A stretch of 64,000 nucleotides of DNA from an uncultured Clostridia bacterium. Lineage in GTDB: Bacteria; Bacillota; Clostridia; Peptostreptococcales; Anaerovoracaceae. The stretch is taken from positions 129,301-193,300 of the forward strand of contig CAKQQT010000001.1 of assembly GCA_934271235.1 (NCBI GenBank). Reading direction: 5' to 3'. This document shows positions 32,194-60,284 of the stretch, piece after piece. A program made the position numbers and the translations under genes. The notes under the pieces are model-generated. The model did not search any database, had not been told where the DNA came from, and saw only the letters and a program-made list of their open reading frames with translations. Numbering within the stretch: the stretch's first letter is position 1; each line of letters opens with the position of its first letter.

Positions 32194-32326
32194 GGGATGC
32201 ACCCCCTCTCTGTTTCACTATAGCATAAAATTCGACCTGATACACAAGAAAATTGGGGATTTTCTTCGTTTTTCCCGCATAGAACACATATTTTTGTCCG
32301 GCTGCACAAAAGGTATGTCTGAAAAT

Positions 32327-32357: not shown

Positions 32358-32415
32358 CTTTTATATACTGGAACAAAGAGAAACTATACAGACATCACAG
32401 TTAGGAGGTAGAATC

Positions 32416-33693: not shown

Positions 33694-33724
33694 CTGCTGC
33701 GCATGCGGAGAACAGGAGGAAAAA

Positions 33725-42817: not shown

Positions 42818-44365
42818 ATGGAAGTTGATTATGGTATATTATGCTTAATTCCACCAATTGTCACCATAGTGCTTGCACTTGTCACAAAGCAGACGATTTT
42901 ATCATTATTTGTAGGTGTTTGGGTAGGCTCCACAATCGTCCAAGGCTGGAATCCGATTACCGGTCTTATTCAGGTCTTTCCGGACTACATCATCCCATCT
43001 TTAGGAAGTTCTTACAATGCTGGTATCATCTTGTTAGTAACACTTGCCGGCGGTATGATCATCATGCTGAGAGAAACAGGCGGTGCTTATGCCTTCGCGA
43101 AGAAGCTGTCAAAAAAGATTGATACTCCGGCGAAAGGTCAGGTCTTAACAAGCATCTCCGCACTGGCATTTTGCTATACGGAACCTTGCCTGATTCTGGG
43201 AACCATCATGCGTCCGGTAACCGATGCGGTCAGAATATCCAGAGCGAAATTAGCTTATATCCTTGACTCACTTGGATGCAACTTAGCGTCCTTCTCCCCG
43301 ATCAGCAGCTACGGCCCGTTCATCGCAGGTCTGGTTGCTACCGAAATCGCTGCAGCAGGTCTGCATGACAGCGAATGGGGCGTATGGGCAGGCATGCTGA
43401 AATACAATATGTATGCATTATTTGCAATCCTTACGGTATTCATCGTAGCATTCGGTGACATCAACTTTGGCGCAATGCATACAGAAGAAATGCGTGCAAG
43501 AAAAGAAGGCAAATTATTAGCAGACGGCGTACAGCCGCTGACTCCGGAAAAAGTTGTAAATTTCCCGGAAGGCTATAAACCAACGATCACTTGCTTCGTA
43601 ATTCCACTGGCGACCTTGTTTGCAGTTCTGTTCGGCGTGATTTTCTGGACAGGCGATATCGCTGCAAACGGATTCACAGGATGTTTCAGAAATTCTAACA
43701 TCACATTGGCGATTATTATGGCTTTTGTTATGACCGGTGTTGCTGCCGGTGCAGTCGGATGCGTGAAAGGTCTCTGGAAGCCGCTGAAAGCGTTCAATAC
43801 ATTTGTTGATGGTATGATCGAACTGATCAACGTACCGTTTATCCTGGTATGCGCATGGTCTCTGGGAAGTGTTGTTTCCAACATGAACACCGGCACGTTC
43901 CTAGCTCATGTGGTAGAGCAGTACCTGACCGCAGGCTTGGTTCCGGGACTGATCTTCTTGGTAGGTGCGCTGATTTCCTTTGCAACCGGTTCTTCATGGG
44001 GTACTTGGTCACTGCTGATGCCGATCGCATTCCCGATGGCAGTACAGTTTGGAATCCCGGAAGCTTATATTGTTGGCTGCGTAATTTCCAGCGGTCTGTT
44101 CGGTGACCAGTGTTCGCCGATTTCTGACACAACTATTTTGTCCTCTACAGGCGCGAGCTGTAACCATATCGTGCACGTTATGACACAGCTTCCTTATGGC
44201 GTAACCGTTGGTGTATCTGCATTTATCGGATACTTTTTTGGCGGACTGACCGGACAGTATATAGCAAGTATTGCGGTCACTGCAGTCGTTCTGGTTGTAG
44301 CACTGATTGCGTTGAAATTTATCTCATCTAGGAAAGATGATAAAAAAGCACCGGCAGTAGCATAA
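42818..44365 (+). CDS. NhaC-family Na+/H+ antiporter-like transporter
   Basis: 515 residues and about eleven to twelve membrane segments. Family landmarks include LSLFVGVWVGSTIVQGWNP near the start, FATGSSWGTWSLLMPIAFPMA (about 387-407) and GLFGDQCSPISDTTILSSTGASCNH. NhaC members exchange Na+ for H+, or act as malate-lactate or amino acid antiporters. Its place at the head of a run with an amidohydrolase and sharing a regulatory block with the hydantoinase operon suggests organic solute transport rather than pH control. GGGAGGTAAAAA precedes ATG 42818. Confidence 0.88.
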   Translation: MEVDYGILCLIPPIVTIVLALVTKQTILSLFVGVWVGSTIVQGWNPITGLIQVFPDYIIPSLGSSYNAGIILLVTLAGGMIIMLRETGGAYAFAKKLSKKIDTPAKGQVLTSISALAFCYTEPCLILGTIMRPVTDAVRISRAKLAYILDSLGCNLASFSPISSYGPFIAGLVATEIAAAGLHDSEWGVWAGMLKYNMYALFAILTVFIVAFGDINFGAMHTEEMRARKEGKLLADGVQPLTPEKVVNFPEGYKPTITCFVIPLATLFAVLFGVIFWTGDIAANGFTGCFRNSNITLAIIMAFVMTGVAAGAVGCVKGLWKPLKAFNTFVDGMIELINVPFILVCAWSLGSVVSNMNTGTFLAHVVEQYLTAGLVPGLIFLVGALISFATGSSWGTWSLLMPIAFPMAVQFGIPEAYIVGCVISSGLFGDQCSPISDTTILSSTGASCNHIVHVMTQLPYGVTVGVSAFIGYFFGGLTGQYIASIAVTAVVLVVALIALKFISSRKDDKKAPAVA

Positions 44366-44487
44366 GGCGGATGCAATGCAAGAACAATCACGATAAGATA
44401 ATATGAACCTAGTTTAAATTTATGAATGATTGCAGAAATGCGGTGGATGTATGCGCCACTGCTTCTGCAGTCACAAAAGGAGAAAAA

Positions 44488-45909
44488 ATGAAAAAAGTTG
44501 ATATGATCGTAAAGGCTCCTTATATTTATACGATGCAGGGAGAGGGCGTAGGCTGTAAAGAAAATATGGCAATGATCGTTGATGGCAGTAAAATCATCGA
44601 TTTAGTACCAGCAGAAGAAGCAGAAAAAATGTATCAGGCAGAGGAATTGCTGAATATGGAGCATCATGCTATTTTTCCGGGCTTTATTGATGGACATATG
44701 CATACATCCGATAATTTATTCCGAGGATTGGCGCAGGATACGAACAGTTGGATGATGTTTGGTCTGCAGCCGTTCGCAAATGCGGGCGAATGGAACGAAA
44801 GAGTTTCAGCAGGCAGATTGGCAATTGTTGAGGCAATTAAAGCCGGAACCACAACACTTGGCGACTACCATTATAATATGGAAGATACCTGCAAATTTAT
44901 AGAAAAGACCGGTGCGAGAGGAAACATCACCCAGATGATTCGTTCCGCAAAACAAAGAGTTTATAAGCCGGGCGAGTTGTATGAGTTTGTTGACGAAGAC
45001 GGAGAGAAAAATCTGAAAGAAAATATGGAGCTGTATGACAAATGGCATAATAAGGGTGGCCGTTTCCGTATTCTTTTCGGACCGCAGGGTGCAGACTTTG
45101 TATCACCGGAACTTCTGTTAAAAATCCAGAAAGTTGCGAAAGAAAGAAAAACAAAGATCCACATGCATGTACAGCAGGGTGACAGAGAGACCTATCAGAT
45201 TGAAAAAAGATATGGTAAGCGTCCGACCGCGTTCCTGCAGGAACTCGGTTATTTGGACAGCACGTTGATCGCAGTGCATCTGACGGACTGCAATGCAGAA
45301 GAGGCGGCGATCATCGGCAGATCCGGCGCAGGTATGATCGTCAACCCGGCTTCTATCGCCATTATTGACGGTATCGTATGCCCGAGCATGGAATTCCAGC
45401 AGGCAGGCGGCAATGTCGCTTTAGGTTCCGACCAGGCGCCGGGCAACAACTGCCACAATATCATTCATGAGATGAAGAATGTTTGTCTGTTCAACAAGAT
45501 TAAATACGGAAATCCGGAAGTTATGCCGGCTTGGCGCGCGCTGAGGATGGCAACCATTGAGGGGGCAAAGGCCGTCGGCGTTGATGATATCGTTGGCTCT
45601 TTGGAAATCGGAAAGCAAGCTGACTTTATCGCCATCGATCTGAGAAGCATTTCCATGATGCCGGTGTATACCTACCCGATGAGAAACATCGTTCCGAATC
45701 TGGTATACAGTGCAAGAGGAAACGAAGTTGTCCTGTCTGTAGTAGCAGGAAAGGTCATTATGAAAGACCAAAAGCTTGTACACATTGATGAAGAAGAAAT
45801 CAAAGATGAAGTCGAAAAACTTCCGGAAAACGTAGGCAAGAGAGCCGAAAAGGAATTCTTTGAAATCAACGGCACAAATGCGCAGTTCATGAGAGAAGGA
45901 AAACTGTAG
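44488..45909 (+). CDS. Amidohydrolase of the SsnA/TRZ/ATZ (aminohydrolase) type
   Basis: 473 residues from ATG 44488, after AAAAGGAG; an in-frame ATG at 44422 lacks a site. All metal-site elements are present: FIDGHMHTSDNLFRG (His-x-His), IHMHVQQGD, AVHLTDCNAEE and LGSDQAPGNN. Members deaminate or dechlorinate guanine, cytosine, triazines, S-adenosylhomocysteine and similar rings. The gene lies 122 bases after the transporter gene. Given the hydantoin genes downstream, an N-heterocycle or amidine is a reasonable substrate class. An acidic tail of about 40 residues follows the fold. Confidence 0.9.
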   Translation: MKKVDMIVKAPYIYTMQGEGVGCKENMAMIVDGSKIIDLVPAEEAEKMYQAEELLNMEHHAIFPGFIDGHMHTSDNLFRGLAQDTNSWMMFGLQPFANAGEWNERVSAGRLAIVEAIKAGTTTLGDYHYNMEDTCKFIEKTGARGNITQMIRSAKQRVYKPGELYEFVDEDGEKNLKENMELYDKWHNKGGRFRILFGPQGADFVSPELLLKIQKVAKERKTKIHMHVQQGDRETYQIEKRYGKRPTAFLQELGYLDSTLIAVHLTDCNAEEAAIIGRSGAGMIVNPASIAIIDGIVCPSMEFQQAGGNVALGSDQAPGNNCHNIIHEMKNVCLFNKIKYGNPEVMPAWRALRMATIEGAKAVGVDDIVGSLEIGKQADFIAIDLRSISMMPVYTYPMRNIVPNLVYSARGNEVVLSVVAGKVIMKDQKLVHIDEEEIKDEVEKLPENVGKRAEKEFFEINGTNAQFMREGKL

Positions 45910-45983
45910 ATTCAAACTCCTTATTTATTAATACTTAACCAAGAGCAATCCGAAGGGTCGTGTAAAATGAAAGGAAGATAGAC

Positions 45984-46829
45984 GTGTTCGCACTTGCAAT
46001 GACCATTGTATCACATTCACTCGTAATCTTTGCCATGCGGTTTACGGAAGCACATAACGGAAACCGCTATGCAGCGACGGTCAGCACTTTTGTAGTTTGT
46101 GCCATCATTTCGTTTTGTATGATGGACAGCCACCTGCTGTTTCAAAACAACAGAGATTACTATTTTGCACTCGGTATGGGCATTTACAACAGTGTCTGTA
46201 TGACGATGGGAATGGTCATCAGCCGGTTGAGCACCGGCATCAACGGAACGCCGATATCGACAACCTTTAATCGTTTGGGCATTCTGATCCCGACCCTGTT
46301 CTCCGTCTTTGTATTTGGAGAAAGACCAGGAATTTTACAAATGGTCGGGATTGCTCTTGCTGTTACCTCCATCATTTATATTAACTCCGGTAAAGGATCA
46401 ATGAGTCAAAACCATATCCAGTCTATGAAGTTACTGCTGATCTTGCTTGCAGTGGGAGGACTGATCGATCTGAACACAAAGATTTATGAAAGATATGGAA
46501 ATCCGGAATTAAATGACTATTTTGTTTTTGTCACCTTTTTTTTCTGCATTTTGGTTAGTTTGACGATCATGCTGACACAAGACAGAAAATTCGATAAGGG
46601 TGATGTGATGATCGGCGCGATGACAGGTATTCCAAATACCTTTATCCTTTATTTCAGCCTGAAAGCGGTTGAAAAACTGCCGGCATACATTGTTTTCCCC
46701 GGCTGCAGCGCCGGCGTCATTCTGCTTGTGAATATCGTAAACCTTTTGGTTTTCAAAGAGGAAATCAATAAAGAAGAAAAAAGATCAACCGTGCTGATCG
46801 CAATCGCTTTGATCCTGATTAATATCTAA
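45984..46829 (+). CDS. DMT-superfamily (EamA-like) transporter
   Basis: 281 residues from GTG 45984, with GAAAGGAAG ahead of it. About nine to ten membrane segments in two halves: TFNRLGILIPTLFSVFVFGERPG ends the first half (about 93-115) and VNLLVFKEEINKEEKRS the second, the usual EamA repeats. It sits between an amidohydrolase and a regulator gene. It may export a by-product or import a metabolite; direction is not deducible. Confidence 0.78.
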   Translation: MFALAMTIVSHSLVIFAMRFTEAHNGNRYAATVSTFVVCAIISFCMMDSHLLFQNNRDYYFALGMGIYNSVCMTMGMVISRLSTGINGTPISTTFNRLGILIPTLFSVFVFGERPGILQMVGIALAVTSIIYINSGKGSMSQNHIQSMKLLLILLAVGGLIDLNTKIYERYGNPELNDYFVFVTFFFCILVSLTIMLTQDRKFDKGDVMIGAMTGIPNTFILYFSLKAVEKLPAYIVFPGCSAGVILLVNIVNLLVFKEEINKEEKRSTVLIAIALILINI

Positions 46830-46908
46830 AAATGCTATAGCACCTATTAAGATTGGAATTCCTGCAAGCTGTCCTCTCAAAGATACATCTTTATCGAAAA
46901 ACACCGAA
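46826..46908 (-). pseudogene. Possible transporter 3' fragment in reverse orientation
   Basis: The minus strand reads SVFFDKDVSLRGQLAGIPI followed by LIGAIAFLDI, which resembles the last helix region of an EamA-type transporter. There is no start and the frame fades upstream. It overlaps only the stop of the DMT gene. It could be a scrap of a rearranged copy or a chance open frame. Confidence 0.3.
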
Positions 46909-46985
46909 GGAAAGTCCGGAGTATTTCGTAGACAAACGGGAAAAAACCATTTATACATTTATAATAAAGCAAAGAGGTGATAGAC

Positions 46986-47768
46986 ATGGCTTTTTTGGAA
47001 GAAAATGAATGGATGATGCTCAATGAAATCGTTTATAACATTTCTTATATCTATTCCTTTGATGAGATGCGAAGACAGACGTTAATCTGGCTGAAAATGT
47101 TGCTTGGATTTGACGGAGCGGTTTTTTCAATTGTGAAAGAAGATGAGTTGAAAGACTCGGTATGCGAAGGCTTCAAAGAAAATGATCCGCGCCATTTCGA
47201 AAAGCTGTTTAATCATGAAAATCCCATGAAATGGATTATTATGAACGGTCGCGCGAATGCATACAGTCAAAGCGAAATGCTGACACAGGAGTCTTTCGAA
47301 AAAACCGACATTTACAAAAAGCATTATTTGATTGAAAATTTCAGGTATAGCATCGGGATGAATATTGTGTTCAAAGATGAAGTTATTGGGCATTTGCAGT
47401 TCTTTCGCAAAAGAGAGTCCGGCGACTTCTCAAAGAGAGAACTGTTCATTATGGATCAGTTAGAGAAGCATTTGGCCTATCGCTTGTCTTATGAAGCAAA
47501 AAAGGGCGACAGCAGGTATTTCTACGCAAAGGGATATCAGGAAAAAATCAATCGTGATTTTGGATTGACAGCAAGAGAAGCAGAAATCCTTGAATATGCA
47601 GTAAAAGGATACAGTAATGTAGCAATTGCAGAGAATATGCAAATAAGTGTGAATACAGTAAAAAAACATTTCCACAGCATGTATGAAAAAATGAACGTTA
47701 AAAACAGAGTTCAATTGCTGCAGAGTTTGCCGCTGTCCACTGATAAGATTAATTTTGACGAATTATAA
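46986..47768 (+). CDS. LuxR-type regulator with N-terminal GAF-like sensor
   Basis: 260 residues from ATG 46986, following AGAGGTGA; a GTG three codons earlier lies in that site. The first 160 residues look like a GAF-type sensor (MLLGFDGAVFSIVKEDEL, IGMNIVFKDEVIGHLQFFR). The C-terminal helix-turn-helix is LTAREAEILEYAVKGYSN with VAIAENMQISVNTVKKHF (about 188-225). It lies exactly between the two operons that share a regulatory block, which makes it the prime candidate for their control. A terminator follows. Confidence 0.9.
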   Translation: MAFLEENEWMMLNEIVYNISYIYSFDEMRRQTLIWLKMLLGFDGAVFSIVKEDELKDSVCEGFKENDPRHFEKLFNHENPMKWIIMNGRANAYSQSEMLTQESFEKTDIYKKHYLIENFRYSIGMNIVFKDEVIGHLQFFRKRESGDFSKRELFIMDQLEKHLAYRLSYEAKKGDSRYFYAKGYQEKINRDFGLTAREAEILEYAVKGYSNVAIAENMQISVNTVKKHFHSMYEKMNVKNRVQLLQSLPLSTDKINFDEL

Positions 47769-47773
47769 GGAAG

Positions 47774-47812
47774 TCACTGCGCCGATCAAATTTTCGGCGG
47801 GTGATTTTTTTT
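47774..47812 (+). terminator. Rho-independent terminator after the LuxR-type gene
   Basis: TCAC (47774-47777) and GTGA (47801-47804), then CGCCGA (47780-47785) and TCGGCG (47794-47799), form a bulged stem followed by eight Ts. It isolates the regulator gene from the next operon. Confidence 0.85.
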
Positions 47813-47840
47813 GTCTGTTTTGCCTTTGAATATAAAACAA

Positions 47841-47945
47841 AAGGGTAAGAAAAATAACGAAAAGTTCTATAAAAGGAAAGGCTGTTTCCAAGAAAACTAA
47901 ACTATGGTTCAATATCATTTGAGAGTTCTAATTGTTATACTGAAA
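47841..47945 (+). promoter_or_regulatory. Regulatory block copy B, upstream of the aldolase-hydantoinase operon
   Basis: AAGGGTAA (47841-47848), ACTAAAC followed by GGTTCAAT (47896-47913) and TATACTGAAA (47936-47945) match copy A at 42543-42646 in order and almost exactly in spacing. TATACT would be the -10 box, about 55 bases before the ATG at 47995. Confidence 0.65.
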
Positions 47946-47994
47946 GAAACAAAGCCGATATTGACAATCAGAATGGAACCAGGAGATTAGTATT

Positions 47995-48648
47995 ATGTTG
48001 ATGGAAGAAAGAATTAGAGAAGCAGGTATTGTGCCTGTCGTAAAATTGGAAGAAATTGAAAAGGCAACGTCTCTCGCAGCAGCGCTGCGAGATGGAGGAA
48101 TCAATTGCGCGGAGGTGACTTTCCGCGCGGCAAAAGCGGAATATGTGATGGATAGGATACGCAGCCGTTTCACGGATATGCTGGTGGGCGCAGGAACCGT
48201 ACTTTCGTTGCAGGAGGCAAAGCGTGCAGTGGATGGAGGAGCAGAATTTCTCGTCAGTCCGGGATTTGACGAGAGAATTGTTGATTTTGCATTAGCAAAT
48301 GATGTGCTGCCATTACCAGGATGTGTGACACCGACTGAAATACAGTACGCAATTGCAAAAGGGTTGAGAGCAGTGAAATTTTTTCCCGCGGCACAGTACG
48401 GCGGTTTAAAAACAATCAAGGCATTAGCAGGACCGTTTGCGCAGGTTCGATTTATGCCAACTGGAGGAATTTCGCTTGAGAATCTTGCAGAATATCTGCA
48501 AGAAAAAAGCGTTTTGGCCTGTGGAGGAACCTTCATGGTAAAAGATGCGTTTCTCTTAGAATCTGATTGGGAAAAAGTAACGGATTTTAGCAGACAGGCC
48601 ACTGAAATTGTAAGAAAGACACGTAAACAGGAGGATAATGAAAAATGA
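47995..48648 (+). CDS. eda: KDPG/KHG aldolase
   Basis: 217 residues. The class I aldolase motifs are there: AALRDGGINCAEVTFR (catalytic Glu), GAGTVLSLQEAKRA, LPGCVTP and the Schiff-base lysine in GLRAVKFFPA (about residue 126). It cleaves 2-keto-3-deoxy-6-phosphogluconate or 4-hydroxy-2-oxoglutarate to pyruvate plus an aldehyde. CCAGGAGAT precedes the ATG. It is the first gene of a six-gene operon that continues through a sugar-acid kinase, an aminotransferase and hydantoin-cleaving enzymes. Confidence 0.93.
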   Translation: MLMEERIREAGIVPVVKLEEIEKATSLAAALRDGGINCAEVTFRAAKAEYVMDRIRSRFTDMLVGAGTVLSLQEAKRAVDGGAEFLVSPGFDERIVDFALANDVLPLPGCVTPTEIQYAIAKGLRAVKFFPAAQYGGLKTIKALAGPFAQVRFMPTGGISLENLAEYLQEKSVLACGGTFMVKDAFLLESDWEKVTDFSRQATEIVRKTRKQEDNEK

Positions 48649-49667
48649 AAAAAATTGTGACATTTGGAGAAATTATGTTACGACTGGCGCCGAAGGGATA
48701 TTTGAGATTTCTGCAGGAACCGGAATTTGAGGCAACTTTTGGCGGAGGAGAAGCGAACGTGGCGGTTTCGCTTGCAAACTTCGGAGCAGATGTCACATTT
48801 ATTACAAAGCTTCCGCAGAATGATATTGGCGAAGCGGCAGTCAGAGACCTGCGCAAATATGGGGTAGATACTTCCATGATTACTCGAGGCGGTAATCGCG
48901 TGGGTATTTACTATCTGGAGAAAGGCGCCTCTCAGCGTCCTTCCAAGGTTATTTATGACAGAGCATGGTCCTCCATCTCCCAAGCTGTGGAAGAAGACTT
49001 TAACTGGAATGAAATCTTTGCAGATGCGCAATGGTTTCATTTTACCGGGATTACACCGGCGCTTGGAAAAAATGTTGCCAGAATTTGTATGGAGGCTGTA
49101 AAAGTAGCGAAGCGGCAAGGACTGACTGTCAGCTGTGATTTGAACTACCGTAAAAATCTTTGGACAACCGAAGAGGCGGGTCAGACCATGGGAGAACTCA
49201 TGCAATATGTAGATGTTTGCATTGCAAATGAAGAAGATGCAGAAAAAGTATTTGGTATTCATGCAGAAGGAACAGACGTCACAAAGGGAAGTCTTTCAAA
49301 GGAAGGTTATGTGCAGGTAGCTCAAAAACTGAAAGACCGCTTTGGATTCAAGTATGTCACAATTACCTTGAGAACCAGTATCTCTGCAAGCGACAATAAG
49401 TGGGCGGCAATGCTTTACAACGGAAAAGAAAGCTTTTTCTCAAAAGAATATACGGTGCATATCGTAGATCGTGTTGGCGGCGGAGACAGCTTTGGGGCCG
49501 GATTGATCTACAGTATGGTCAGCGATATGCAAGATCAGGAATGCCTTGAATTTGCGGTAGCGGCCTCCTGTCTGAAACACAGTATCGAGGGTGATTTTAA
49601 TAGAGTAACAGTAAAGGAAGTGCTTTCACTTGCTGGCGGAGACGGATCCGGAAGGGTACAGAGGTAG
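48645..49667 (+). CDS. kdgK: 2-keto-3-deoxygluconate kinase (PfkB family)
   Basis: 340 residues, starting in an ATGA overlap with the aldolase gene. TFGEIMLRLAPKGY and FGGGEANVAVSLANFG are the N-terminal sugar-binding motifs; the signature DRVGGGDSFGAGLIYS (near 280-295) carries the catalytic Asp. The family phosphorylates 2-keto-3-deoxygluconate or related acids, giving the substrate of the preceding aldolase. Length and motifs fit KdgK best, although other PfkB sugar kinases look alike. Confidence 0.88.
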   Translation: MKKIVTFGEIMLRLAPKGYLRFLQEPEFEATFGGGEANVAVSLANFGADVTFITKLPQNDIGEAAVRDLRKYGVDTSMITRGGNRVGIYYLEKGASQRPSKVIYDRAWSSISQAVEEDFNWNEIFADAQWFHFTGITPALGKNVARICMEAVKVAKRQGLTVSCDLNYRKNLWTTEEAGQTMGELMQYVDVCIANEEDAEKVFGIHAEGTDVTKGSLSKEGYVQVAQKLKDRFGFKYVTITLRTSISASDNKWAAMLYNGKESFFSKEYTVHIVDRVGGGDSFGAGLIYSMVSDMQDQECLEFAVAASCLKHSIEGDFNRVTVKEVLSLAGGDGSGRVQR

Positions 49668-49671
49668 CGAA

Positions 49672-50844
49672 ATGAAGATGATTGCGGATAATACAGCGAA
49701 TATTCAATATTCAAAAATCAGAAAAATGTTCAACAAAGCTCTCCAATATGAAAACCCAATCAATTTTACTATCGGAGAACCGGATTTTATCGCTTCGGAT
49801 CATGTGGCAGCGGCTGCGTGCAAAGCAATTTTGGAAGGAAAAAGCAAGTACAGCGAAAATGCGGGAATCAAACCACTCAGGGAAGCGATCAGCAGATATC
49901 TGAAGCAGGAGATTGGTATGTGTTATTCACCGGAGTATGAGATTACAGTCAATGTCGGAGCCATGAATTCAATTTTCGAAGGATTGAAAGCAGTTATCGA
50001 TTCGAATGATGAGGTGATTGTGATCGAGCCATGCTGGACCAATTATATTCAGCAGATTCAGATGTGTGGCGGTAAGCCGGTTAGCGTTTGTGCAGATCTC
50101 GAAAACGATTTTTCTTTGGATATTGACGCAATTCGGAATGCAATTACAAAAAAGACGAAGTTAATTATCATCAATTCCCCGTGTAACCCTACTGGAACGG
50201 TACTTGACAGGAAAATGCTTGCGAAACTGGCTGAACTTGTGAATGAGAATGATCTCCTCGTAATCAGTGATGAGGTTTATAAACATATTTTGTTTGATGA
50301 TAATACTTTTACAAGTATTTCAACATTCCCGGGTATGCGAGAGCGCACTTTGGTGGTAGATAGCTTTTCTAAGACCTTTGCCATGACCGGTTTTCGTGTT
50401 GGATATGCGGCAGGGCCTTCTGAATGGGTGAAAAACATCACAAAACTGCAGGAAAACGTAACCGCATGTGCGGCGATGCCGTGTCAATATGCAGCATTGG
50501 CGGCATTGGAGGGTACGCGTGAGCATTTGTACTATATGGTAGAAAGCTATCGGAAGAGAAGGGACTATTTAGCGGAACGTATTGCAAAGATGCCGCTTTT
50601 AAAGTATAACAAATCAAAAGGAACTTTCTATGCATTCTTGTCGATCAAAGAAACAGGCATGAGCAGCGAAGCATTCGCTGAAAAACTGCTTGAGGAAGAA
50701 CAGGTGGTAGTTGTTCCTGGAAATGCTTTTGGAGATTACGGGGAAGGATATATTCGCATCTCTTTTGCGTCCGCCATGGAGAATATTAGAATTGGCATGG
50801 ATCGCTTGGAGGCGTTCATGCAGCGAATCGCGGAAAGCAGATAG
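49672..50844 (+). CDS. PLP-dependent aminotransferase, class I/II
   Basis: 390 residues from ATG 49672, four bases after the kinase stop and behind AGAGGT. Landmarks: NFTIGEPDF, KYSENAGIKPLREAI, INSPCNPTGT, DEVYKHI and the PLP-lysine motif VDSFSKTFAMTGFRVGY (about 225-241), then Arg in YIRISFA. It converts an amino acid to the 2-oxo acid. Between a keto-acid kinase and a carbamoylase, it is well placed to turn the amino acid released from an N-carbamoyl compound into the keto acid that is then phosphorylated. The amino acid itself is unknown. Confidence 0.93.
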   Translation: MKMIADNTANIQYSKIRKMFNKALQYENPINFTIGEPDFIASDHVAAAACKAILEGKSKYSENAGIKPLREAISRYLKQEIGMCYSPEYEITVNVGAMNSIFEGLKAVIDSNDEVIVIEPCWTNYIQQIQMCGGKPVSVCADLENDFSLDIDAIRNAITKKTKLIIINSPCNPTGTVLDRKMLAKLAELVNENDLLVISDEVYKHILFDDNTFTSISTFPGMRERTLVVDSFSKTFAMTGFRVGYAAGPSEWVKNITKLQENVTACAAMPCQYAALAALEGTREHLYYMVESYRKRRDYLAERIAKMPLLKYNKSKGTFYAFLSIKETGMSSEAFAEKLLEEEQVVVVPGNAFGDYGEGYIRISFASAMENIRIGMDRLEAFMQRIAESR

Positions 50845-50853
50845 AGGTGGGAT

Positions 50854-52053
50854 ATGGGAATTCAGACAGAAAGGTTGCTTCGAGATTTGAAAAATCTTGG
50901 GCAAATCGGCTATGAAGAGGGAAAAGGCGTTTTTCGCATGGCTTACAGTACGGCTTTCCTGGAAGGCAGAGCCTTCGTAAAAAAAAGAATGGAAGAAGCC
51001 GGATTACAGACTTCCATAGATGCTGTCGGAAATCTTATCGGGATTCTTCCCGGTTCTGGAAAAGAGAGCAGAAGAATTGCAATCGGTTCACATATTGATA
51101 CTGTACCCGGTGGCGGCATTTATGATGGTGCGCTCGGAGTGATAGCAGGCATTGAGATTGTACGAGCATTACAAGAGGAAGGATACCAAAACAGACATCC
51201 GATTGAAATCATTGCATTTAATGAAGAAGAGGGAAATGTCATCGGAGGAACCTTTGGAAGTAAAGCGTTTGCAGGTGCTGCACTGGAGGAAGCAATGATG
51301 CAGCCGATGCGGGAACATAAGATCACAAAAGCAGACTTTCAAAGTTGTAAAAGAAACGGAAAAGCGTATGAAGCCTATTTGGAGTATCATATCGAACAGG
51401 GTGGTATTTTAGAAAAAGAAGAAAAACAGATTGGCATTGTAAAAGGAATTTTTGGAATCCTACGGTATCGGGCATTTGTTTCCGGTTTTGCAAACCATGC
51501 GGGCAGTACGCCGATGCATTTGCGCGATGATGCTATGGAAAAAGCTTGCCGCATGATCTGTGATCTGATGGATACAGTCAGAAAAAGCAGTGATACAATG
51601 GTCTGCACTGTCGGAACCATACACTTGGAACCAGGAGCCGTAAATGTCATTCCGGGAAAAGTGGAATTTATCATTGAACTTAGAGACAGAGATATGATAC
51701 AGATGAGAAGTTTGATTGAAGCATTCTGGAGAAAATGGAAGACTGCAGGGCTGACTTTACAGGAGTATATAACACAACCTGAGACGCGATGTGATGACAG
51801 ACTTTATTCGCTGGCAAAAAAGCTTGCAGAAGAGAGACAGGAAAATTATCTGTCCATGTATAGCGGTGCCGGACATGATTTGATAAATACATCTATGTTG
51901 ATGCCTTCGATGTTGGTATTTGTACCAAGCATAGGTGGGATCAGCCACAGATATGAGGAATATTCAAAACCGGAGGACATCAACGCAGGGACAGAATTCA
52001 TGCTTAGCATGCTAAAAAAAATTGATGCAGGAGGATACGGATATGAAGATTAA
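50854..52053 (+). CDS. N-carbamoyl-amino acid hydrolase / allantoate-amidohydrolase-like M20 enzyme
   Basis: 399 residues. Binuclear metal motifs: GSHIDTVPGGGIYDGALGVIA (His, Asp), FNEEEGN (catalytic Glu, metal Glu), EYHIEQGGILE (His), and the final GAGHD with a later His in GGISHRYEEYS. The family (HyuC, AllC, beta-ureidopropionase) removes the carbamoyl group from N-carbamoyl-L-amino acids or ureido acids, releasing CO2 and ammonia. It directly precedes the hydantoin racemase and hydantoinase genes, which supports carbamoylase activity. Confidence 0.92.
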   Translation: MGIQTERLLRDLKNLGQIGYEEGKGVFRMAYSTAFLEGRAFVKKRMEEAGLQTSIDAVGNLIGILPGSGKESRRIAIGSHIDTVPGGGIYDGALGVIAGIEIVRALQEEGYQNRHPIEIIAFNEEEGNVIGGTFGSKAFAGAALEEAMMQPMREHKITKADFQSCKRNGKAYEAYLEYHIEQGGILEKEEKQIGIVKGIFGILRYRAFVSGFANHAGSTPMHLRDDAMEKACRMICDLMDTVRKSSDTMVCTVGTIHLEPGAVNVIPGKVEFIIELRDRDMIQMRSLIEAFWRKWKTAGLTLQEYITQPETRCDDRLYSLAKKLAEERQENYLSMYSGAGHDLINTSMLMPSMLVFVPSIGGISHRYEEYSKPEDINAGTEFMLSMLKKIDAGGYGYED

Positions 52054-52792
52054 GCTAATTAACCCTAACACGACCCTTTCCATGACAGACAGCATTCGTA
52101 AAATGGCGGAGACTGTTGCCGATCTCGGAACCGAGATTCTGGCAGTCAGCCCGGCAAGCGGTCCGGAAAGCATTGAATGCTATGTGGATGAATATCTTGC
52201 TGTTCCGGGTGTCGTGCAGGAAGTCATCAAAGGTGATCTTGAAGAAGGTGTGGATGCATATGTGATCGCCTGTTTTGGAGATCCAGGGCTTCAGGCAGCG
52301 CGGGAAGTGACAGAAAAACCGGTTGTCGGTATTTGTGAAGCTGCAGTTACGATGGCAAAAATGCTTGCGCCATATTTCAGCGTGGTATCTGTGCTTGATC
52401 GTTCCCGTAAAGTTACGGAGGATATCATTACAGCTTATGGCGCAGAGCACTTTTGTCGGTCGATTCGAAGCACAGGTCTGTCAGTCTTGGAATTTGGAAA
52501 TAATCCGGAGAAGGGACTCGAAGCATTGGCTATGCAGGGGAAACAAGCGGTAGAAGAAGATGGAGCTGAGTGTATCTTGCTCGGCTGCGCAGGGTTTGTT
52601 GACTTTTTGGATACATTGCGTGATAGACTTGGTGTACCGGTTCTTGATGGGGTATCTCCTGCAGTGAAACTTGCGGAGTCAATGGTGAAACTTGGATTAA
52701 AAACCAGCAAAAACAATACATGGAAGCAACCTGAGAGAAAAGAAATTAAAGGATTCGAAGGCATTGTTTCCGTTGAAAGACTTTTTAGATAA
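52043..52792 (+). CDS. Hydantoin racemase (Asp/Glu racemase family)
   Basis: 249 residues from ATG 52043, with an AGGAGGATACG site and an 11-base overlap with the carbamoylase gene. INPNTTLSMTDSIRK is the family start; the two catalytic cysteines are in VIACFGDPGLQAAR and CILLGCAGFVDFL. HyuE-type enzymes interconvert D- and L-5-substituted hydantoins so that both isomers can be used. Its position between carbamoylase and hydantoinase is the classic hyu arrangement. Confidence 0.9.
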   Translation: MKIKLINPNTTLSMTDSIRKMAETVADLGTEILAVSPASGPESIECYVDEYLAVPGVVQEVIKGDLEEGVDAYVIACFGDPGLQAAREVTEKPVVGICEAAVTMAKMLAPYFSVVSVLDRSRKVTEDIITAYGAEHFCRSIRSTGLSVLEFGNNPEKGLEALAMQGKQAVEEDGAECILLGCAGFVDFLDTLRDRLGVPVLDGVSPAVKLAESMVKLGLKTSKNNTWKQPERKEIKGFEGIVSVERLFR

Positions 52793-52806
52793 ACAAGGAG
52801 TGGAAA

Positions 52807-54210
52807 ATGAAAGTACTTGTAAAAAGTGGATGGATTATTACAGACAGCAATGAATTTCAGGGAGATATTCTGATTGAAGATGAAAAAATTACGGCTATCG
52901 GAACGAAAATTGAAGAAAATGTTGATATGACCATTGACGCCTCCGGCAAATATGTGATGCCGGGCGGCGTTGATCAGCATACACATTTTTCAGCATTATG
53001 CAACGTGGGCGATAAGGATACGGCAGGATACGAAACGACAGACGCTGCGATTGTAGGAGGGACAACAACAATTGTTGATTTTGCACCGCAGGATCCTGAT
53101 GTCGGACTGTTGGACTCTATAGACTATCGTATCAATGTGCGTGCAAAAGGCAAAGCATGTGTAGATTTTTCTCTGCATGCAATGGTGACAAGCTTGATGG
53201 ATAGCATCTTTGACGAGATTCAATATTTTCCGGAGAAAGGAATTTCCAATATCAAAATTTTTATGGCATATAACGGTTCACGTATGCATACCGATGACGG
53301 ATCTTTCTTTAGAATTCTGGAAGAAGCAAAGAAAGTAGGGGCGACTGTATTTGTACATGCGGAAAGTGGAGAAATCATCAATTTTTTACGAGAAGAATGT
53401 GTCAAGAAGGGGCAGCTTTCACCGAAATATCATTATATCTCTCGGCCTCCTTACACCGAGGCTGAGGGCGTGCATCGTGCGGCATATTTAGCGGGTAAGG
53501 CCGGAACACCGCTTTACGTTGCGCATGTGACCTCTAGAGAAGCCCTGCAGGAAATCATAGAGGCGAAGGGAAATGGCATCAATATCAATGGAGAAACCTG
53601 TACGCATTATCTTACAACCACGAAGGAAGTGCTTGATAATCCGGACTTCAACGAAGCGGCAAAATATGTATGTTCACCGGCGCTTCGGGATCAAGAGGAT
53701 ATCGATGCGCTTTGGGAAGCTTTGAATAGCGGTATTCTAACCGCAATTTCCTCGGATCATTGCGGTATTGACGTTGCGGAACTGAAACAGGCAGGTCGAG
53801 ACAATTTCACAAATATTCCGAATGGTTCTCCGGGTGCAGGGGATCGTTTCCATATGATTTGGACGAATGGTGTTGCCAACGGGAAAATTTCTAAACAAAA
53901 ATTTGTGGAACTGATTTCGACAAAGCCTGCGAAAATTAATGGGATTTATCCTCGTAAAGGAGCAATATTGGTTGGCTCCGATGCAGATATTGTCATTTTT
54001 GATCCGGAATATCGCGGTATCGTTCGATTGGAAGATAATCCGAATGGAGTAGATTATAATGTCTATGAGGGTCGAAAACAGATCGGTAGAGTCGATACGG
54101 TGCTGCTTCGCGGACATGTTGCTGTGGAAGGCGGAAAGTTCGTAGGCAATTATGGTATGGGAGAATTCATTCCTGCAAAAATGTATGCAGCATGCTATAC
54201 CGGAATATAA
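52807..54210 (+). CDS. Dihydropyrimidinase / hydantoinase
   Basis: 467 residues. The zinc-site residues are all visible: GGVDQHTHFS (His-x-His), the carboxylated lysine in NIKIFMAYNGS, VFVHAESGE, YVAHVTSREAL and ISSDHCG (Asp). The motif order matches D-hydantoinase and dihydropyrimidinase. It opens a hydantoin or dihydropyrimidine ring to an N-carbamoyl acid in the cytoplasm. AACAAGGAGTGG precedes the ATG. It is the last gene of the operon; no terminator hairpin is seen, and transposon debris begins soon after. Confidence 0.93.
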   Translation: MKVLVKSGWIITDSNEFQGDILIEDEKITAIGTKIEENVDMTIDASGKYVMPGGVDQHTHFSALCNVGDKDTAGYETTDAAIVGGTTTIVDFAPQDPDVGLLDSIDYRINVRAKGKACVDFSLHAMVTSLMDSIFDEIQYFPEKGISNIKIFMAYNGSRMHTDDGSFFRILEEAKKVGATVFVHAESGEIINFLREECVKKGQLSPKYHYISRPPYTEAEGVHRAAYLAGKAGTPLYVAHVTSREALQEIIEAKGNGININGETCTHYLTTTKEVLDNPDFNEAAKYVCSPALRDQEDIDALWEALNSGILTAISSDHCGIDVAELKQAGRDNFTNIPNGSPGAGDRFHMIWTNGVANGKISKQKFVELISTKPAKINGIYPRKGAILVGSDADIVIFDPEYRGIVRLEDNPNGVDYNVYEGRKQIGRVDTVLLRGHVAVEGGKFVGNYGMGEFIPAKMYAACYTGI

Positions 54211-54395
54211 TTTTCATCACGATTTTTTTGTTACCGCGTCAACTCGAACGAGATGACTGCACTGCCAGGCTGGGGACGCAAACAAACACCAATGCAGTCG
54301 GATTGGATAAGCGCGACGTGCAGTATAATGGTCCTGCTTATCAAGGCACTTGTTCGAGAATTTTATCATGAATTTTAACGACTGTTCGGGATGCT

Positions 54396-54505
54396 TCAAT
54401 ATGCTACATCCCATTTTGATTCCGTTTGGGAGTTGTTATAATAGATACTGTCCGGCGTAGCGTAATCATGAGTCATATGCGGTCTTTCGCTGTTGTACTC
54501 TCTGC
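54396..54505 (-). mobile_element. IS3/IS481-type transposase remnant (C-terminal end)
   Basis: The minus strand reads EYNSERPHMTHDYATPDSI and then on to a TGA at 54396-54398. This is the well-known end of DDE integrase-core transposases (YN-ERPH-x-GY-TP). No more of the element is present: upstream the frame is lost where it meets the AlbA_2 remnant. It lies 186 bases after the hydantoinase gene. The rest of the 54211-54395 gap shows no gene and may be the old right end of the element. Confidence 0.7.
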
Positions 54506-54519
54506 GGCATGGCAGACAG

Positions 54520-54827
54520 CCAGATTTCAGTCAAACCTGAAAGCGGAAGCATTCACTTTTAGAGAAAATTCAGTTGTGGTAACAATCCCGCATCAAAAGA
54601 TTAAAAAGATTGGGAAAAAAGTTGGGATTAAAAAGGAATTAAATTCAAGAAGACAAGGGATTATAACCGAAATGAGAGACAATCCGAATATCACGACCAG
54701 TGAATTGCATCAAATCTTGGGAATCAGTGAAACAGCAGCAGAAAATAATTTTGCCTTCTTAAAAGCAAATGGATATGTAGAAAGAGTTGGTTCTAAAAAG
54801 ACTGGTTATTGGAAAGTGCTTGGGTAA
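54520..54827 (+). pseudogene. 3' remnant of an AlbA_2/Schlafen-type ATP-binding protein gene
   Basis: About the last 100 codons of a protein whose end is FTFRENSVVVTIPHQKI, a lysine-rich linker and a winged helix (ITTSELHQILGISETAAENN, then FLKANGYVERVGSKKTGYW). This layout is typical for the C terminus of AlbA_2-domain DNA-binding proteins of 400-500 residues. An open frame runs on from 54426, but its first 30-35 codons are antisense to the transposase remnant and not homologous. The insertion has therefore removed the front of the gene. Confidence 0.65.
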
Positions 54828-54835
54828 GCTCTTCC

Positions 54836-54864
54836 TTGCTTTTCCGCGGATATTTGGATATAAT
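54836..54864 (+). promoter_or_regulatory. Promoter of the MalT-like regulator gene
   Basis: TTGCTT (54836-54841), 17-base spacer, perfect TATAAT (54859-54864), 38 bases before the ATG. AGGAGAGCATC is the ribosome site. Confidence 0.75.
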
Positions 54865-54902
54865 GGAAGCTATAAAACAGGATTCATGCGGAGGAGAGCA
54901 TC

Positions 54903-57483: not shown

Positions 57484-58434
57484 TTGAAAAAAAGAAAGAG
57501 GATTTTAAAAACGACGCTGCTGCTTCTGCTCTGTATCGCGCTTGCGGTCCTGACCGGCTGCGGCGGGACCACCGGCGGCGAGACGGAAGAAGATATCCGG
57601 TTGGATCCGGCCGAACTGACGGAAGAAAACAGCTTTCCGATCCGGATCGTAAACGCAAGCGGACGTTCCGTCGGGACGATCGAATTTTCGTGGTACGGCG
57701 ATGCGGGTGAATGCTACCTGGATGTGTTGGGCAGCGGAGATACTCTGGAAGCGGATGAAGTCCTGGACACCAGGATCCAGCCGACAGACGGATCGTATTT
57801 TGTCCAGACCTGCGCAGCAGATGAGGGAGAAGAACAGATCAGCTATCTGGTCCTGTACGGCCCGGATGTGAAGGAAGGAAGCGTGCTCGTGCTGCTTCCG
57901 GATGATGAGCAGGAGGTGCAGATCCTGTTTGATGCCGGAACGGACGCACAGGAAGCTGAGAAAAAAGCGCTTGCGGACTATCAGGCGGCATCGGAAGGAA
58001 AGCCTCTGCCTTCCGAGGAGGAGACCGGCGGACTGTCTGCCGAGGAGATCGCGGCAGCTGCAGCGAAGCTGGGATACGAATCTCTCGGCGAAATGCGCAC
58101 CAAGCAGCATGAATATCTCGACTCGAACGATCCGGTCAGCCAGGGCATCGAGGGATATTGGTATCCGGACGGCGACCGTGAGAGCACGGAATACTTCTCG
58201 ATCTACAACGGGACCCTTTACTTCTATGAATTTGATCCGGAACAAGGCGATGTACAGACCGGAATGCTGAACCTCAGCTTAAGACATTCCGGAACGGTTA
58301 CCACCAGCGGCGGGACAACTTTCGAATACAGCAAATGCGGAAGCGGACCGCTTCGGACCTCAAATGACATGGAAAAAGACACCATCGTCTTTGACGGCGA
58401 CCGTGATACGGTGTATTACTGGAGATTACAGTAA
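57484..58434 (+). CDS. Lipoprotein 1, unknown function
   Basis: 316 residues starting at TTG 57484 behind AAGGAGGAG. A basic N terminus, a hydrophobic stretch and the lipobox LTGC (Cys26) mark an exported lipoprotein. The mature part is very acidic, with a beta-rich domain at about 40-150, a helical linker rich in Glu and Ala (about 155-205), and a C-terminal beta domain that contains GYWYPDGDREST. I recognise no family. First of four lipoproteins between the MalT-like regulator and LemA. Confidence 0.8.
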   Translation: MKKRKRILKTTLLLLLCIALAVLTGCGGTTGGETEEDIRLDPAELTEENSFPIRIVNASGRSVGTIEFSWYGDAGECYLDVLGSGDTLEADEVLDTRIQPTDGSYFVQTCAADEGEEQISYLVLYGPDVKEGSVLVLLPDDEQEVQILFDAGTDAQEAEKKALADYQAASEGKPLPSEEETGGLSAEEIAAAAAKLGYESLGEMRTKQHEYLDSNDPVSQGIEGYWYPDGDRESTEYFSIYNGTLYFYEFDPEQGDVQTGMLNLSLRHSGTVTTSGGTTFEYSKCGSGPLRTSNDMEKDTIVFDGDRDTVYYWRLQ

Positions 58435-58459
58435 CCTGTAACGGAAAAGGAGGAATTAT

Positions 58460-58714
58460 GTGGAACGAAAGTATATTTTAGCGGTAAAGCCGTTAGACGA
58501 GCACATCCTGCAGGTCGATTTTATATCCGGCAGCCGTCTGCTTTTGGATCTGAAGCCCTATCTGGATAAGATCCGCTTTCGGCCTCTGCTGGATCCGCAG
58601 GTATGGAGCAGTGCCGTGACAAACGGGATCTTCGTCCGCTTCGGCAATGTGGAACTGAGCCACGACGAGATCTTATCCATGGCAGAACAGGAAAATCAGC
58701 CTCGAAATGCTTAA
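58460..58714 (+). CDS. DUF2442-like small protein
   Basis: 84 residues from GTG 58460, since the ATG two bases earlier stops after seven codons; GGAGGAATT is the ribosome site. The sequence pattern (FISGSRLLLDLKPYLD, then FRPLLDPQVW and FGNVELSHDEIL) matches DUF2442, a family of small cytoplasmic proteins often found near toxin-antitoxin or mobile genes. No partner toxin is visible beside it. Its place inside a lipoprotein array is odd. Confidence 0.7.
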   Translation: MERKYILAVKPLDEHILQVDFISGSRLLLDLKPYLDKIRFRPLLDPQVWSSAVTNGIFVRFGNVELSHDEILSMAEQENQPRNA

Positions 58715-58752
58715 AAATGAAGAAGAGCATGAGAAGATAAAGGAGAAAAACG

Positions 58753-59478: not shown

Positions 59479-59508
59479 GGGGAGACCTGCGAAAGAAAAG
59501 GGAAAACG

Positions 59509-60252: not shown

Positions 60253-60284
60253 GAGGGACCGCCGCCCGATGAGAGGAGAACGGT

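What the first reader, a model, noticed from the sequence alone, without database searches (positions are those of the whole stretch)
47995..54210. Operon joining hydantoin ring opening to a keto-deoxy sugar acid pathway
Six tightly packed genes encode KDPG/KHG aldolase, KDG kinase, aminotransferase, N-carbamoylase, hydantoin racemase and hydantoinase. Hydantoin genes and Entner-Doudoroff-type genes each form known sets, but together they spell a full route: hydantoin to N-carbamoyl amino acid, to amino acid, to 2-keto acid, to phosphorylated keto-deoxy acid, to pyruvate plus a phospho-aldehyde. That predicts a substrate with a polyhydroxyalkyl side chain on the hydantoin, or a ureido sugar acid. 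I know of no described pathway of this form. The steps are family-level knowledge; the order and substrate are inference.
Basis: partly seen in the sequence, partly recalled or inferred. Interest (0 to 1): 0.78.

Follow-up and report, generated by a model that had tools for sequence, protein, structure and literature searches.

The report
Hydantoin operon feeding sugar-acid breakdown
A bacterium related to animal-gut species carries a conserved gene set that appears to open a ring-shaped, sugar-bearing nitrogen compound and turn it into pyruvate, perhaps a way of eating the sugar-damaged arginine that forms in heated food.

Summary
In detail: six complete, tightly spaced genes (47995-54210, gaps -11 to +14 nt) encode KDPG/KHG aldolase, KDG kinase, aminotransferase, M20 carbamoylase, hydantoin racemase and D-hydantoinase. 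All six recur in 7 of 8 related loci, in two gene orders, with a differently derived aldolase in one lineage. No UxaC, UxuA or KduI was found in five genomes with the cluster (G001-G005), and no KDG kinase outside it; Sedimentibacter keeps a second kinase in a separate uronate region. I propose it cuts arginine hydroimidazolones (glycation products): 3DG-H would give ornithine plus 5-(2,3,4-trihydroxybutyl)hydantoin, which the six enzymes would turn exactly into KDG, then pyruvate and glyceraldehyde-3-phosphate. The core route is well supported by gene context (about 0.75); the glycation substrate is inference (about 0.4). No activity is shown. My paper searches listed no such pathway.

The parts
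42818..44365 (+). NhaC-type Na+/H+ antiporter family transporter, proposed importer (or substrate/amine antiporter)
   Evidence: PF03553, 167 bits. Next to the amidohydrolase here and in L004, L008, L035, L040, L041, L043, L044 (62-79%) and L053 (42%)
44488..45909 (+). TRZ/ATZ-type amidohydrolase (COG0402-like; the longer ORF starts at 44422); proposed to release an amine from a 2-amino-imidazol-4-one and make the hydantoin
   Evidence: PF01979, 163 bits; best NCBIfam model 289 of 540 bits. Orthologue in 7 of 7 cluster genomes. Metal ligands H70 H72 H227 H264 D315 invariant in 21 rows; Q230 replaces the usual Glu. AlphaFold model pLDDT 91; nearest folds are adenosine deaminases, AtzA, isocytosine deaminase Vcz and TrzN
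45984..46829 (+). EamA-type transporter, possible exporter
   Evidence: PF00892, 43 bits; also beside the amidohydrolase in L035 (64%), L038 (44%) and L043 (34%)
46977..47768 (+). LuxR-type regulator, likely controls the six-gene operon
   Evidence: PF00196; 56-67% identical gene directly before the set in L001, L002, L003, L008, and in L004 several genes before it
47995..48648 (+). KDPG/KHG aldolase
   Evidence: TIGR01182 234 bits, PF01081; aligned to KDPG aldolases, with the FFPA and PTGGI segments present
48645..49667 (+). 2-keto-3-deoxygluconate (KDG) kinase, PfkB family
   Evidence: PF00294; 2afb KDG kinase 412 bits over residues 3-340; NCBIfam KDG kinase models below cut-off
49672..50844 (+). 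class I/II PLP aminotransferase
   Evidence: PF00155, 231 bits; start taken at the ATG at 49672, 4 nt after the kinase stop
50854..52053 (+). M20-type N-carbamoyl amino acid amidohydrolase
   Evidence: TIGR01879 331 bits (cut-off 204); nearest solved chain 3n5f L-N-carbamoylase, 233 bits
52043..52792 (+). hydantoin/allantoin racemase family (PF01177)
   Evidence: PF01177 187 bits; nearest solved chains are a putative hydantoin racemase 3qvj and allantoin racemase 5lfd
52807..54210 (+). D-hydantoinase/dihydropyrimidinase
   Evidence: TIGR02033 490 bits (cut-off 393); nearest solved chain D-hydantoinase 1nfg

Best explanation
The operon and its upstream neighbours form a catabolic pathway for a hydantoin that carries a 3-deoxy-sugar side chain. 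Most likely source: arginine-derived glycation products (hydroimidazolones), above all 3DG-H, the adduct of arginine with 3-deoxyglucosone. Proposed steps: (1) uptake by the NhaC-type transporter (an Opp-type ABC system in some relatives); (2) the TRZ/ATZ-type amidohydrolase hydrolyses the exocyclic C-N bond, giving ornithine and 5-(2,3,4-trihydroxybutyl)hydantoin; (3) racemase plus hydantoinase open the ring, the racemase handling a C5 centre that forms without enzyme control; (4) the M20 carbamoylase gives 2-amino-3-deoxyhexonate; (5) the aminotransferase gives KDG; (6) KDG kinase and KDPG aldolase give pyruvate and glyceraldehyde-3-phosphate. Shown here: gene families, operon spacing, conservation, and absence of detected uronate enzymes in several hosts. 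Inferred: every reaction, the order and the substrate. Confidence below is for the whole, substrate included; for steps 3-6 on some polyhydroxyalkyl hydantoin I would say about 0.75.
For: Family assignments. All six genes in 7 of 8 loci, two orders; the aldolase of L004-L006 belongs to another lineage than the window's (starred branches force at least 2 changes) while the hydantoinases of L004-L006 stay 81-82% like the window's, so the function rather than the gene was kept. In the order sample, hydantoinases at least 75% identical occur in 4 of 297 genomes, and 3 of these 4 have the kinase/aldolase beside them (G002, G003, G004; not G210). No UxaC, KduI or UxuA in G001-G005; one ILVD_EDD gene each, of 557-568 aa; no KDG kinase outside the cluster in G001-G005 at E 1e-30; G007 has a second kinase on its uronate contig. 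Amidohydrolase orthologue in 7 of 7 cluster genomes searched, and beside complete hydantoinase-racemase-M20 sets in 6 of 20 amidohydrolase genomes of the order sample. 3DG-H1 is N-delta-(5-hydro-5-(2,3,4-trihydroxybutyl)-4-imidazolon-2-yl)ornithine (passages of PMC5751160 and PMC9029922); the atoms balance step by step to KDG. Ornithine aminomutase in 18 of 20 amidohydrolase genomes against 185 of 297 overall (hypergeometric p 0.005, kinship not corrected).
Against: No activity, expression or growth data. The amidohydrolase has an invariant Gln (Q230) where the aligned deaminases have a Glu, so its chemistry may differ. 13 of 20 amidohydrolase genomes show no hydantoin gene (E 1e-12) in the stretches read, so it may have another main role. 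Of the divergent sets beside it, the ring-opening enzymes of L048 and L053 pass the allantoinase cut-off (TIGR03178 370 and 377 bits, cut-off 358) and not the D-hydantoinase one, and a second amidohydrolase in L053 is a dihydroorotase: there the link may be to allantoin. G210 and G006 keep the hydantoin set without kinase/aldolase, so the set also serves other substrates. In the window the amidohydrolase is probably on another transcription unit than the six genes (226 nt gap after luxR). Genome-wide, KDG kinase and hydantoinase are not associated in the order (5 genomes with both, p 0.64). Genomes are partly MAGs, so absence may be incompleteness; the window's own genome is not held, nor L001's. 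One G001 contig carries a strong enolase-superfamily match.
Confidence: 0.4

Rival explanations
1. The hydantoin is the real input, not a hydroimidazolone: a 5-(polyhydroxyalkyl)hydantoin or ureido sugar acid from another source (for example urea plus 3-deoxyglucosone) is imported and degraded by the six enzymes alone; the amidohydrolase belongs to another pathway.
For: The six genes are complete by themselves. The amidohydrolase is probably on a separate unit, and 13 of 20 genomes with it show no hydantoin gene in the stretches read.
Against: The amidohydrolase is in 7 of 7 cluster genomes and sits beside several divergent hydantoinase-type sets.
Confidence: 0.22
2. Two unrelated jobs share one operon: a hydantoin-to-amino-acid module (for example for MG-H1, giving alanine) and a KDG/KDPG module that works on KDG from uronates or sugar acids.
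For: Close KDG kinases are widespread in the order (54 of 297 genomes); in 12 other places that I read, 10 had an aldolase beside the kinase and none a hydantoin gene. G006 and G210 have the hydantoin set without them.
Against: No UxaC, KduI or UxuA found in G001-G005; separate second kinase in G007; the pairing survives rearrangement and aldolase replacement.
Confidence: 0.2
3. A purine/allantoin pathway: allantoinase, allantoate amidohydrolase and allantoin racemase, with the KHG/KDPG aldolase handling glyoxylate.
For: The racemase's nearest solved relatives include allantoin racemase 5lfd; the best-scoring NCBIfam model of the M20 protein is named allantoate amidohydrolase (362 of 399 bits, below cut-off); two divergent sets beside the amidohydrolase (L048, L053) pass the allantoinase cut-off.
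Against: For the window itself: allantoinase TIGR03178 260 bits against cut-off 358, AllC TIGR03176 246 against 598, while D-hydantoinase TIGR02033 passes. It needs no KDG kinase or aminotransferase of this kind.
Confidence: 0.1
4. Dihydropyrimidine (uracil/thymine) degradation by dihydropyrimidinase and a beta-ureidopropionase-like M20 enzyme.
For: TIGR02033 covers dihydropyrimidinases.
Against: No dihydropyrimidine dehydrogenase among the 30 window proteins scanned with Pfam (not all window genes); racemase, KDG kinase and aldolase have no role; nearest solved M20 chain is an L-N-carbamoylase.
Confidence: 0.05

Closest known systems
Hydantoin utilisation (hyu) clusters: D-hydantoinase, N-carbamoylase, hydantoin racemase (set recalled)
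   Same: The same three enzyme families, in one tight operon
   Different: Here an aminotransferase, KDG kinase and KDPG aldolase continue the route, and an amidohydrolase/transporter pair stands upstream
Lower uronate / semi-phosphorylative Entner-Doudoroff branch (KDG kinase + KDPG aldolase)
   Same: The same two enzymes; kinase close to T. maritima KDG kinase
   Different: No UxaC, UxuA or KduI among the window proteins scanned with Pfam (30), or found in genomes G001-G005
Ergothioneine utilisation (Ert) pathway
   Same: Hydantoin-5-propionate amidohydrolase and N-carbamyl-L-glutamate amidohydrolase do the analogous two steps (NCBIfam ErtD, ErtE models)
   Different: Scores far below the Ert cut-offs (211 of 650; 333 of 520 bits)
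Amadori-product catabolism (frl/gfr: fructoselysine kinase and deglycase)
   Same: Bacterial recovery of sugar carbon and amino acid from glycated amino acids (PMC12735817 passages)
   Different: Those act on lysine Amadori products; this would act on arginine hydroimidazolones by different enzymes
TRZ/ATZ-type (COG0402) amidohydrolases: AtzA, TrzN, MTA/SAH and isocytosine deaminases
   Same: Fold and metal ligands
   Different: 20-29% identity to these in the fold search; conserved Gln in place of the HxxE Glu, and no Glu aligned at the WPxE position of the five aligned deaminase-type chains

Membership tests
Hydantoin utilisation cluster | D-hydantoinase above curated cut-off | tested here: met
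   TIGR02033 490.5 bits, cut-off 393.25
Hydantoin utilisation cluster | N-carbamoylase of the hydantoinase/carbamoylase family | tested here: met
   TIGR01879 330.7 bits, cut-off 204
Hydantoin utilisation cluster | hydantoin racemase family gene adjacent | tested here: met
   PF01177 187.4 bits, cut-off 31; overlaps the M20 gene by 11 nt. Allantoin racemases are in the same family
Hydantoin utilisation cluster | hydantoin hydrolysis in vitro | not testable with these tools
   needs enzyme assays
Lower Entner-Doudoroff branch (KDG to pyruvate + G3P) | KDPG aldolase above cut-off | tested here: met
   TIGR01182 234 bits, cut-off 156
Lower Entner-Doudoroff branch (KDG to pyruvate + G3P) | KDG kinase | tested here: inconclusive
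   412 bits to the solved KDG kinase 2afb, but no NCBIfam KDG-kinase model reaches its cut-off; activity not tested
Uronate degradation | UxaC, UxuA or KduI with the kinase/aldolase | tested here: not met
   none of the three in G001-G005; all three in G007 but on another contig than the hydantoin cluster; UxuA alone in G006. Window's own genome not held
Allantoin degradation | allantoinase and allantoate deiminase above cut-off | tested here: not met
   window: TIGR03178 260 of 358 bits; TIGR03176 246 of 598 bits
Ergothioneine utilisation (Ert) | ErtD and ErtE above cut-off | tested here: not met
   NF058539 211.5 of 650; NF058540 332.5 of 520
MTA/SAH (adenosine) deaminase, for the amidohydrolase | catalytic HxxE Glu and the WPxE Glu present in the aligned deaminases | tested here: not met
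   Q230 invariant in 21 rows and no Glu aligned at the WPxE position; the roles of the two Glu are recalled
Arginine-hydroimidazolone (AGE) catabolism (proposed) | release of ornithine and a 5-substituted hydantoin by the amidohydrolase | not testable with these tools
   proposed from context and chemistry; ornithine aminomutase in 18 of 20 amidohydrolase genomes is only suggestive

The most novel reading that the evidence does not exclude
The amidohydrolase subfamily is a hydroimidazolone hydrolase, the shared entry step of a family of clostridial pathways that consume arginine-derived glycation products. It releases ornithine and a hydantoin; hydantoinase, racemase and carbamoylase open the ring; and the downstream module is matched to the side chain: aminotransferase + KDG kinase + KDPG aldolase for 3DG-H (window), an ammonia-lyase with RidA for a beta-hydroxy side chain (L035), or no sugar module for simple side chains such as MG-H1 (G210, L007).
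Probability: 0.3. Interest if true: 0.9.

Novelty: new variant of a known kind. Interest (0 to 1): 0.72.

Why it matters
If the core reading holds, it is a catabolic route that joins hydantoin chemistry to sugar-acid chemistry, and it gives a natural substrate for at least one hydantoinase/racemase/carbamoylase set, enzymes much used in industry (recalled). If the substrate is a glycated arginine, it names candidate genes for microbial removal of hydroimidazolones. In the passages I read, a 2025 review describes bacterial pathways for fructoselysine, breakdown of carboxymethyllysine and growth of gut isolates on methylglyoxal-modified protein; its one mention each of hydroimidazolone and MG-H1 is in a figure legend on formation (PMC12735817, 12 of 23 places shown). 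It is directly testable with a few purified enzymes and defined substrates.

Tried and rejected
Own-genome search: not possible, no whole genome is held. Promoter and terminator scan of 42400-55000: 28 promoter-like sites against 25.0 expected, 12 terminator-like against 11.2, so no information. Genome-wide co-occurrence of amidohydrolase and KDG kinase: 10 of 20 against 54 of 297, p 8e-4, but mostly in different loci and not corrected for kinship, so I do not rest on it; amidohydrolase with hydantoinase at E 1e-120: 5 of 20 against 29 of 297, p 0.03; KDG kinase with hydantoinase: 5, p 0.64, so no genome-wide association, only a clade-specific cluster. Kinase tree (18 rows; L002 and L063 left out): a single origin of the cluster kinases is not ruled out (1 change, weak support 53/83), unlike the aldolase; two of 17 aldolase rows (L065, L072) were dropped before that tree because my stretch held a stop, and L002 was not included. 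Allantoin and Ert readings of the window's genes fail model cut-offs; the pyrimidine reading was set aside on gene content. Enolase-superfamily search (PF13378) is noisy, since weak matches in frames of about 420 aa are probably enolase itself (recalled); G001 and G006 have strong matches. Paper searches: hydroimidazolone + hydantoinase 0, trihydroxybutyl + hydantoin 0, hydantoinase + 2-keto-3-deoxygluconate 3 (synthetic-chemistry or assay papers by title and abstract start), hydroimidazolone + amidohydrolase 1 (unrelated by title and abstract start), Emergencia + advanced glycation 11 (none relevant by title); broader searches were seen as listings, some capped (20 of 48, 20 of 60, 12 of 32). 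Only open-licence PMC papers were searched. An adenosine-type deaminase activity of the amidohydrolase is not excluded by assay, only made unlikely by residues.

Changed on re-check: I had overlooked that the ring-opening enzymes of L048 and L053 pass the allantoinase cut-off; I therefore lowered the main reading from 0.45 to 0.4 and the bold reading from 0.35 to 0.3, and raised the allantoin rival from 0.08 to 0.1 and the hydantoin-as-input rival from 0.2 to 0.22.

Full report
OBSERVATION. Their spacing is -4, +4, +9, -11 and +14 nt. All six pass a Pfam gathering score; aldolase, carbamoylase and hydantoinase also pass NCBIfam cut-offs. The kinase passes no NCBIfam KDG-kinase cut-off but matches the T. 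maritima KDG kinase 2afb over its whole length at 412 bits. The M20 enzyme is nearer to an L-N-carbamoylase (3n5f, 233 bits) than to allantoate amidohydrolase (1z2l, 179 bits) among solved chains, although its top NCBIfam model, below cut-off, is named allantoate amidohydrolase. None of the 25 NCBIfam models shown for the aminotransferase (of 94) reached its cut-off, so its substrate is open.

CONSERVATION. One scan of genome contigs with the carbamoylase gave 8 loci, all of them kept. All eight hold carbamoylase, racemase, hydantoinase and aminotransferase; seven (L001-L006, L008) also hold KDG kinase and aldolase. Caveats: the scan reaches close relatives of this one carbamoylase only; L002 ends inside the hydantoinase and its kinase is split between two frames; L007 lacks kinase and aldolase, and its genome G006 has no KDG kinase at E 1e-30. 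The order is the window's in L001, L002, L003 and L008 (L008 has one extra membrane protein gene), but in L004-L006 it is carbamoylase, racemase, hydantoinase, kinase, aldolase, aminotransferase. There the hydantoinase is 81-82% identical to the window's but the kinase only 52% and the aldolase 46%. In a tree of 15 aldolases the L004-L006 genes lie apart from the window's, and well-supported branches force at least two changes of the cluster label; for the kinase a single origin is not ruled out. A search that did not start from the carbamoylase agrees: in 297 genomes of the order, hydantoinases at least 75% identical occur in four, of which G002, G003 and G004 have kinase and aldolase beside them and G210 does not. 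Pairing kept through rearrangement and through replacement of the aldolase argues that the combined function is selected.

IS IT A STRAY URONATE PAIR? In the same 297 genomes close KDG kinases occur in 54. I read 12 of these places outside hydantoin clusters: 10 have an aldolase beside the kinase and none a hydantoin gene (E 1e-10). So the enzyme pair is ordinary in itself. But the genomes with the combined cluster differ: G001-G005 have no match for UxaC, KduI or UxuA. In G002-G005 the cluster kinase is the only KDG kinase found at E 1e-30, and in G001 the two matches are the two pieces of the split cluster gene. Each of G001-G005 has one ILVD_EDD gene, of 557-568 aa, the size I recall for dihydroxyacid dehydratase. 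G007 (Sedimentibacter saalensis) has UxaC, UxuA and KduI with a 61% kinase on contig C12, and a second, 73% kinase in the hydantoin cluster on C10. These are partly draft genomes, so absences are suggestive. One G001 contig and G006 carry a strong enolase-superfamily match. L001's genome was not held.

THE MISSED PARTNER. Upstream of the operon lie an NhaC-type transporter, a TRZ/ATZ-type amidohydrolase, an EamA transporter and a LuxR regulator. An orthologue of the amidohydrolase (66-79% identity; in G005 and G001 pieces at contig ends) is in 7 of 7 cluster genomes. Other long homologues there are 30% or less; short local matches reach 40%, and two short 57-63% pieces lie at contig ends. In G002 it lies at the end of a cluster that runs LuxR, aldolase, kinase, aminotransferase, carbamoylase, racemase, hydantoinase, sigma-54-type activator, Opp-type ABC genes, three divergent amidohydrolases, a solute-binding protein, amidohydrolase. 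In the order sample 20 of 297 genomes have it at E 1e-140. I compared stretches of 6.5 to 19.5 kb around it in all 20 (blast at E 1e-12; the printed gene list was cut): complete racemase-carbamoylase-hydantoinase sets accompany it in 6 (G002, G003, G004, G079, G210, G263), G127 shows only a hydantoinase fragment, and 13 show none, some on short contigs. The sets in G079, G263 and the second G210 place are only 26-57% like the window's, so the association has recurred with different sets. Against a simple reading, the ring-opening enzymes of G079 (L048) and of the second G210 place (L053) pass the allantoinase cut-off and not the D-hydantoinase one, and a neighbour in L053 is a dihydroorotase; the G263 enzyme passes the D-hydantoinase cut-off. 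Allantoin is itself a hydantoin, so a common ring chemistry remains possible. The recurring association is the best evidence that the product of the amidohydrolase is a hydantoin; the 13 genomes without such a set are the best evidence that this is not its only role. Among 21 core rows the five metal ligands are invariant, and so is Q230 at the place of the Glu found in the five aligned solved chains. A confident model (pLDDT 91) has adenosine deaminases, AtzA, isocytosine deaminase and TrzN as nearest solved folds. Several TrzN entries in that list are E241Q mutants; that this Glu is the counterpart of Q230 is recalled, not computed.

MECHANISM PROPOSED. What natural compound would a ring-amine hydrolase turn into a hydantoin that ends as a keto-deoxy sugar acid? 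3-Deoxyglucosone and arginine form 3DG-H1, N-delta-(5-hydro-5-(2,3,4-trihydroxybutyl)-4-imidazolon-2-yl)ornithine (passages of PMC5751160 and PMC9029922). Hydrolysis of its exocyclic C-N bond gives ornithine and 5-(2,3,4-trihydroxybutyl)hydantoin. Ring opening, decarbamoylation and transamination then give C6H10O6, the formula of KDG, with atoms balanced at each step. PMC9029922 gives the trihydroxybutyl group of a related adduct as (2S,3R), which would map on the (4S,5R) centres of KDG (the KDG descriptors are recalled). The C5 centre of such adducts forms without an enzyme, which would explain the racemase. Ornithine aminomutase, a sign of ornithine fermentation, is in 18 of 20 amidohydrolase genomes against 185 of 297 in the sample, without correction for kinship. 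In L035 a different hydantoin set is followed by RidA and a threonine-ammonia-lyase-like enzyme instead of kinase and aldolase, and G210 has the set with no sugar module beside it, as expected if the downstream part is matched to the side chain. All reactions remain inference.

KNOWN OR NEW. The parts are known families; hyu clusters, the lower Entner-Doudoroff branch and Ert ergothioneine genes each share some steps, and the allantoin and Ert readings of the window's genes fail curated cut-offs. Ten paper searches in an open-licence library listed no paper that, by title and abstract start, describes this combination or hydroimidazolone catabolic genes; several lists were capped. I read passages of three papers and the outline and abstract of one (not relevant); the rest I saw only as listings. 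The review PMC12735817, in the passages seen, treats fructoselysine/glucoselysine systems, carboxymethyllysine breakdown and isolates grown on methylglyoxal-modified protein; its single mentions of hydroimidazolone and MG-H1 are in a figure legend. I rate it a new variant of a known kind, with a bolder reading stated separately.

Noticed in passing
window 30583-36348: A second hydantoin-like neighbourhood: PucR-type regulator (minus strand), NCS1 cytosine/purine/allantoin-type permease, an S-methylthiohydantoin-desulfurase-like protein (PF06032; far below the NCBIfam cut-off), and an M20 peptidase.
   Followed up: partly
window 57484-61010: Four successive ORFs (57484, 58753, 59509, 60285) start with lipoprotein-like signal sequences; perhaps a tandem family of small secreted lipoproteins of unknown role (by eye).
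   Followed up: no
window 44488-45909, homologue list: Proteins 82-83% identical to the amidohydrolase are named as Emergencia timonensis by their sources; whether that species has the six-gene set was not tested.
   Followed up: no
L049, L050, L051 (G013, G025, G037): The amidohydrolase (60-62% like the window's) is followed by a glyoxalase-fold protein and, after one more gene, an agmatinase-family gene; both scanned in L049 only, which again hints at guanidino or dicarbonyl chemistry.
   Followed up: partly
L036 (G231), L054 (G006): Tandem copies of the amidohydrolase, the first cut off by the contig start.
   Followed up: no
L001:3415-5253 (minus strand): An Amidohydro_3 protein with a lipoprotein-like N-terminus lies near the cluster, possibly an extracytoplasmic hydrolase.
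   Followed up: no
L008:8172-8837, L004:3697-4371, L040:17698-18354: A membrane-protein-like gene of about 220 aa travels with the cluster in three genomes; the L008 copy has no Pfam match.
   Followed up: no
L041:5689-5853: Only a short hydantoinase fragment (67% identity) is found before the activator, transporter and amidohydrolase in G127, which looks like loss of the hydantoin set.
   Followed up: no
L004:14384-15343, L005, L006: The KDPG aldolase ORF of these clusters is 319 aa long; in the L004 copy the last 110 or so residues have no Pfam match.
   Followed up: no
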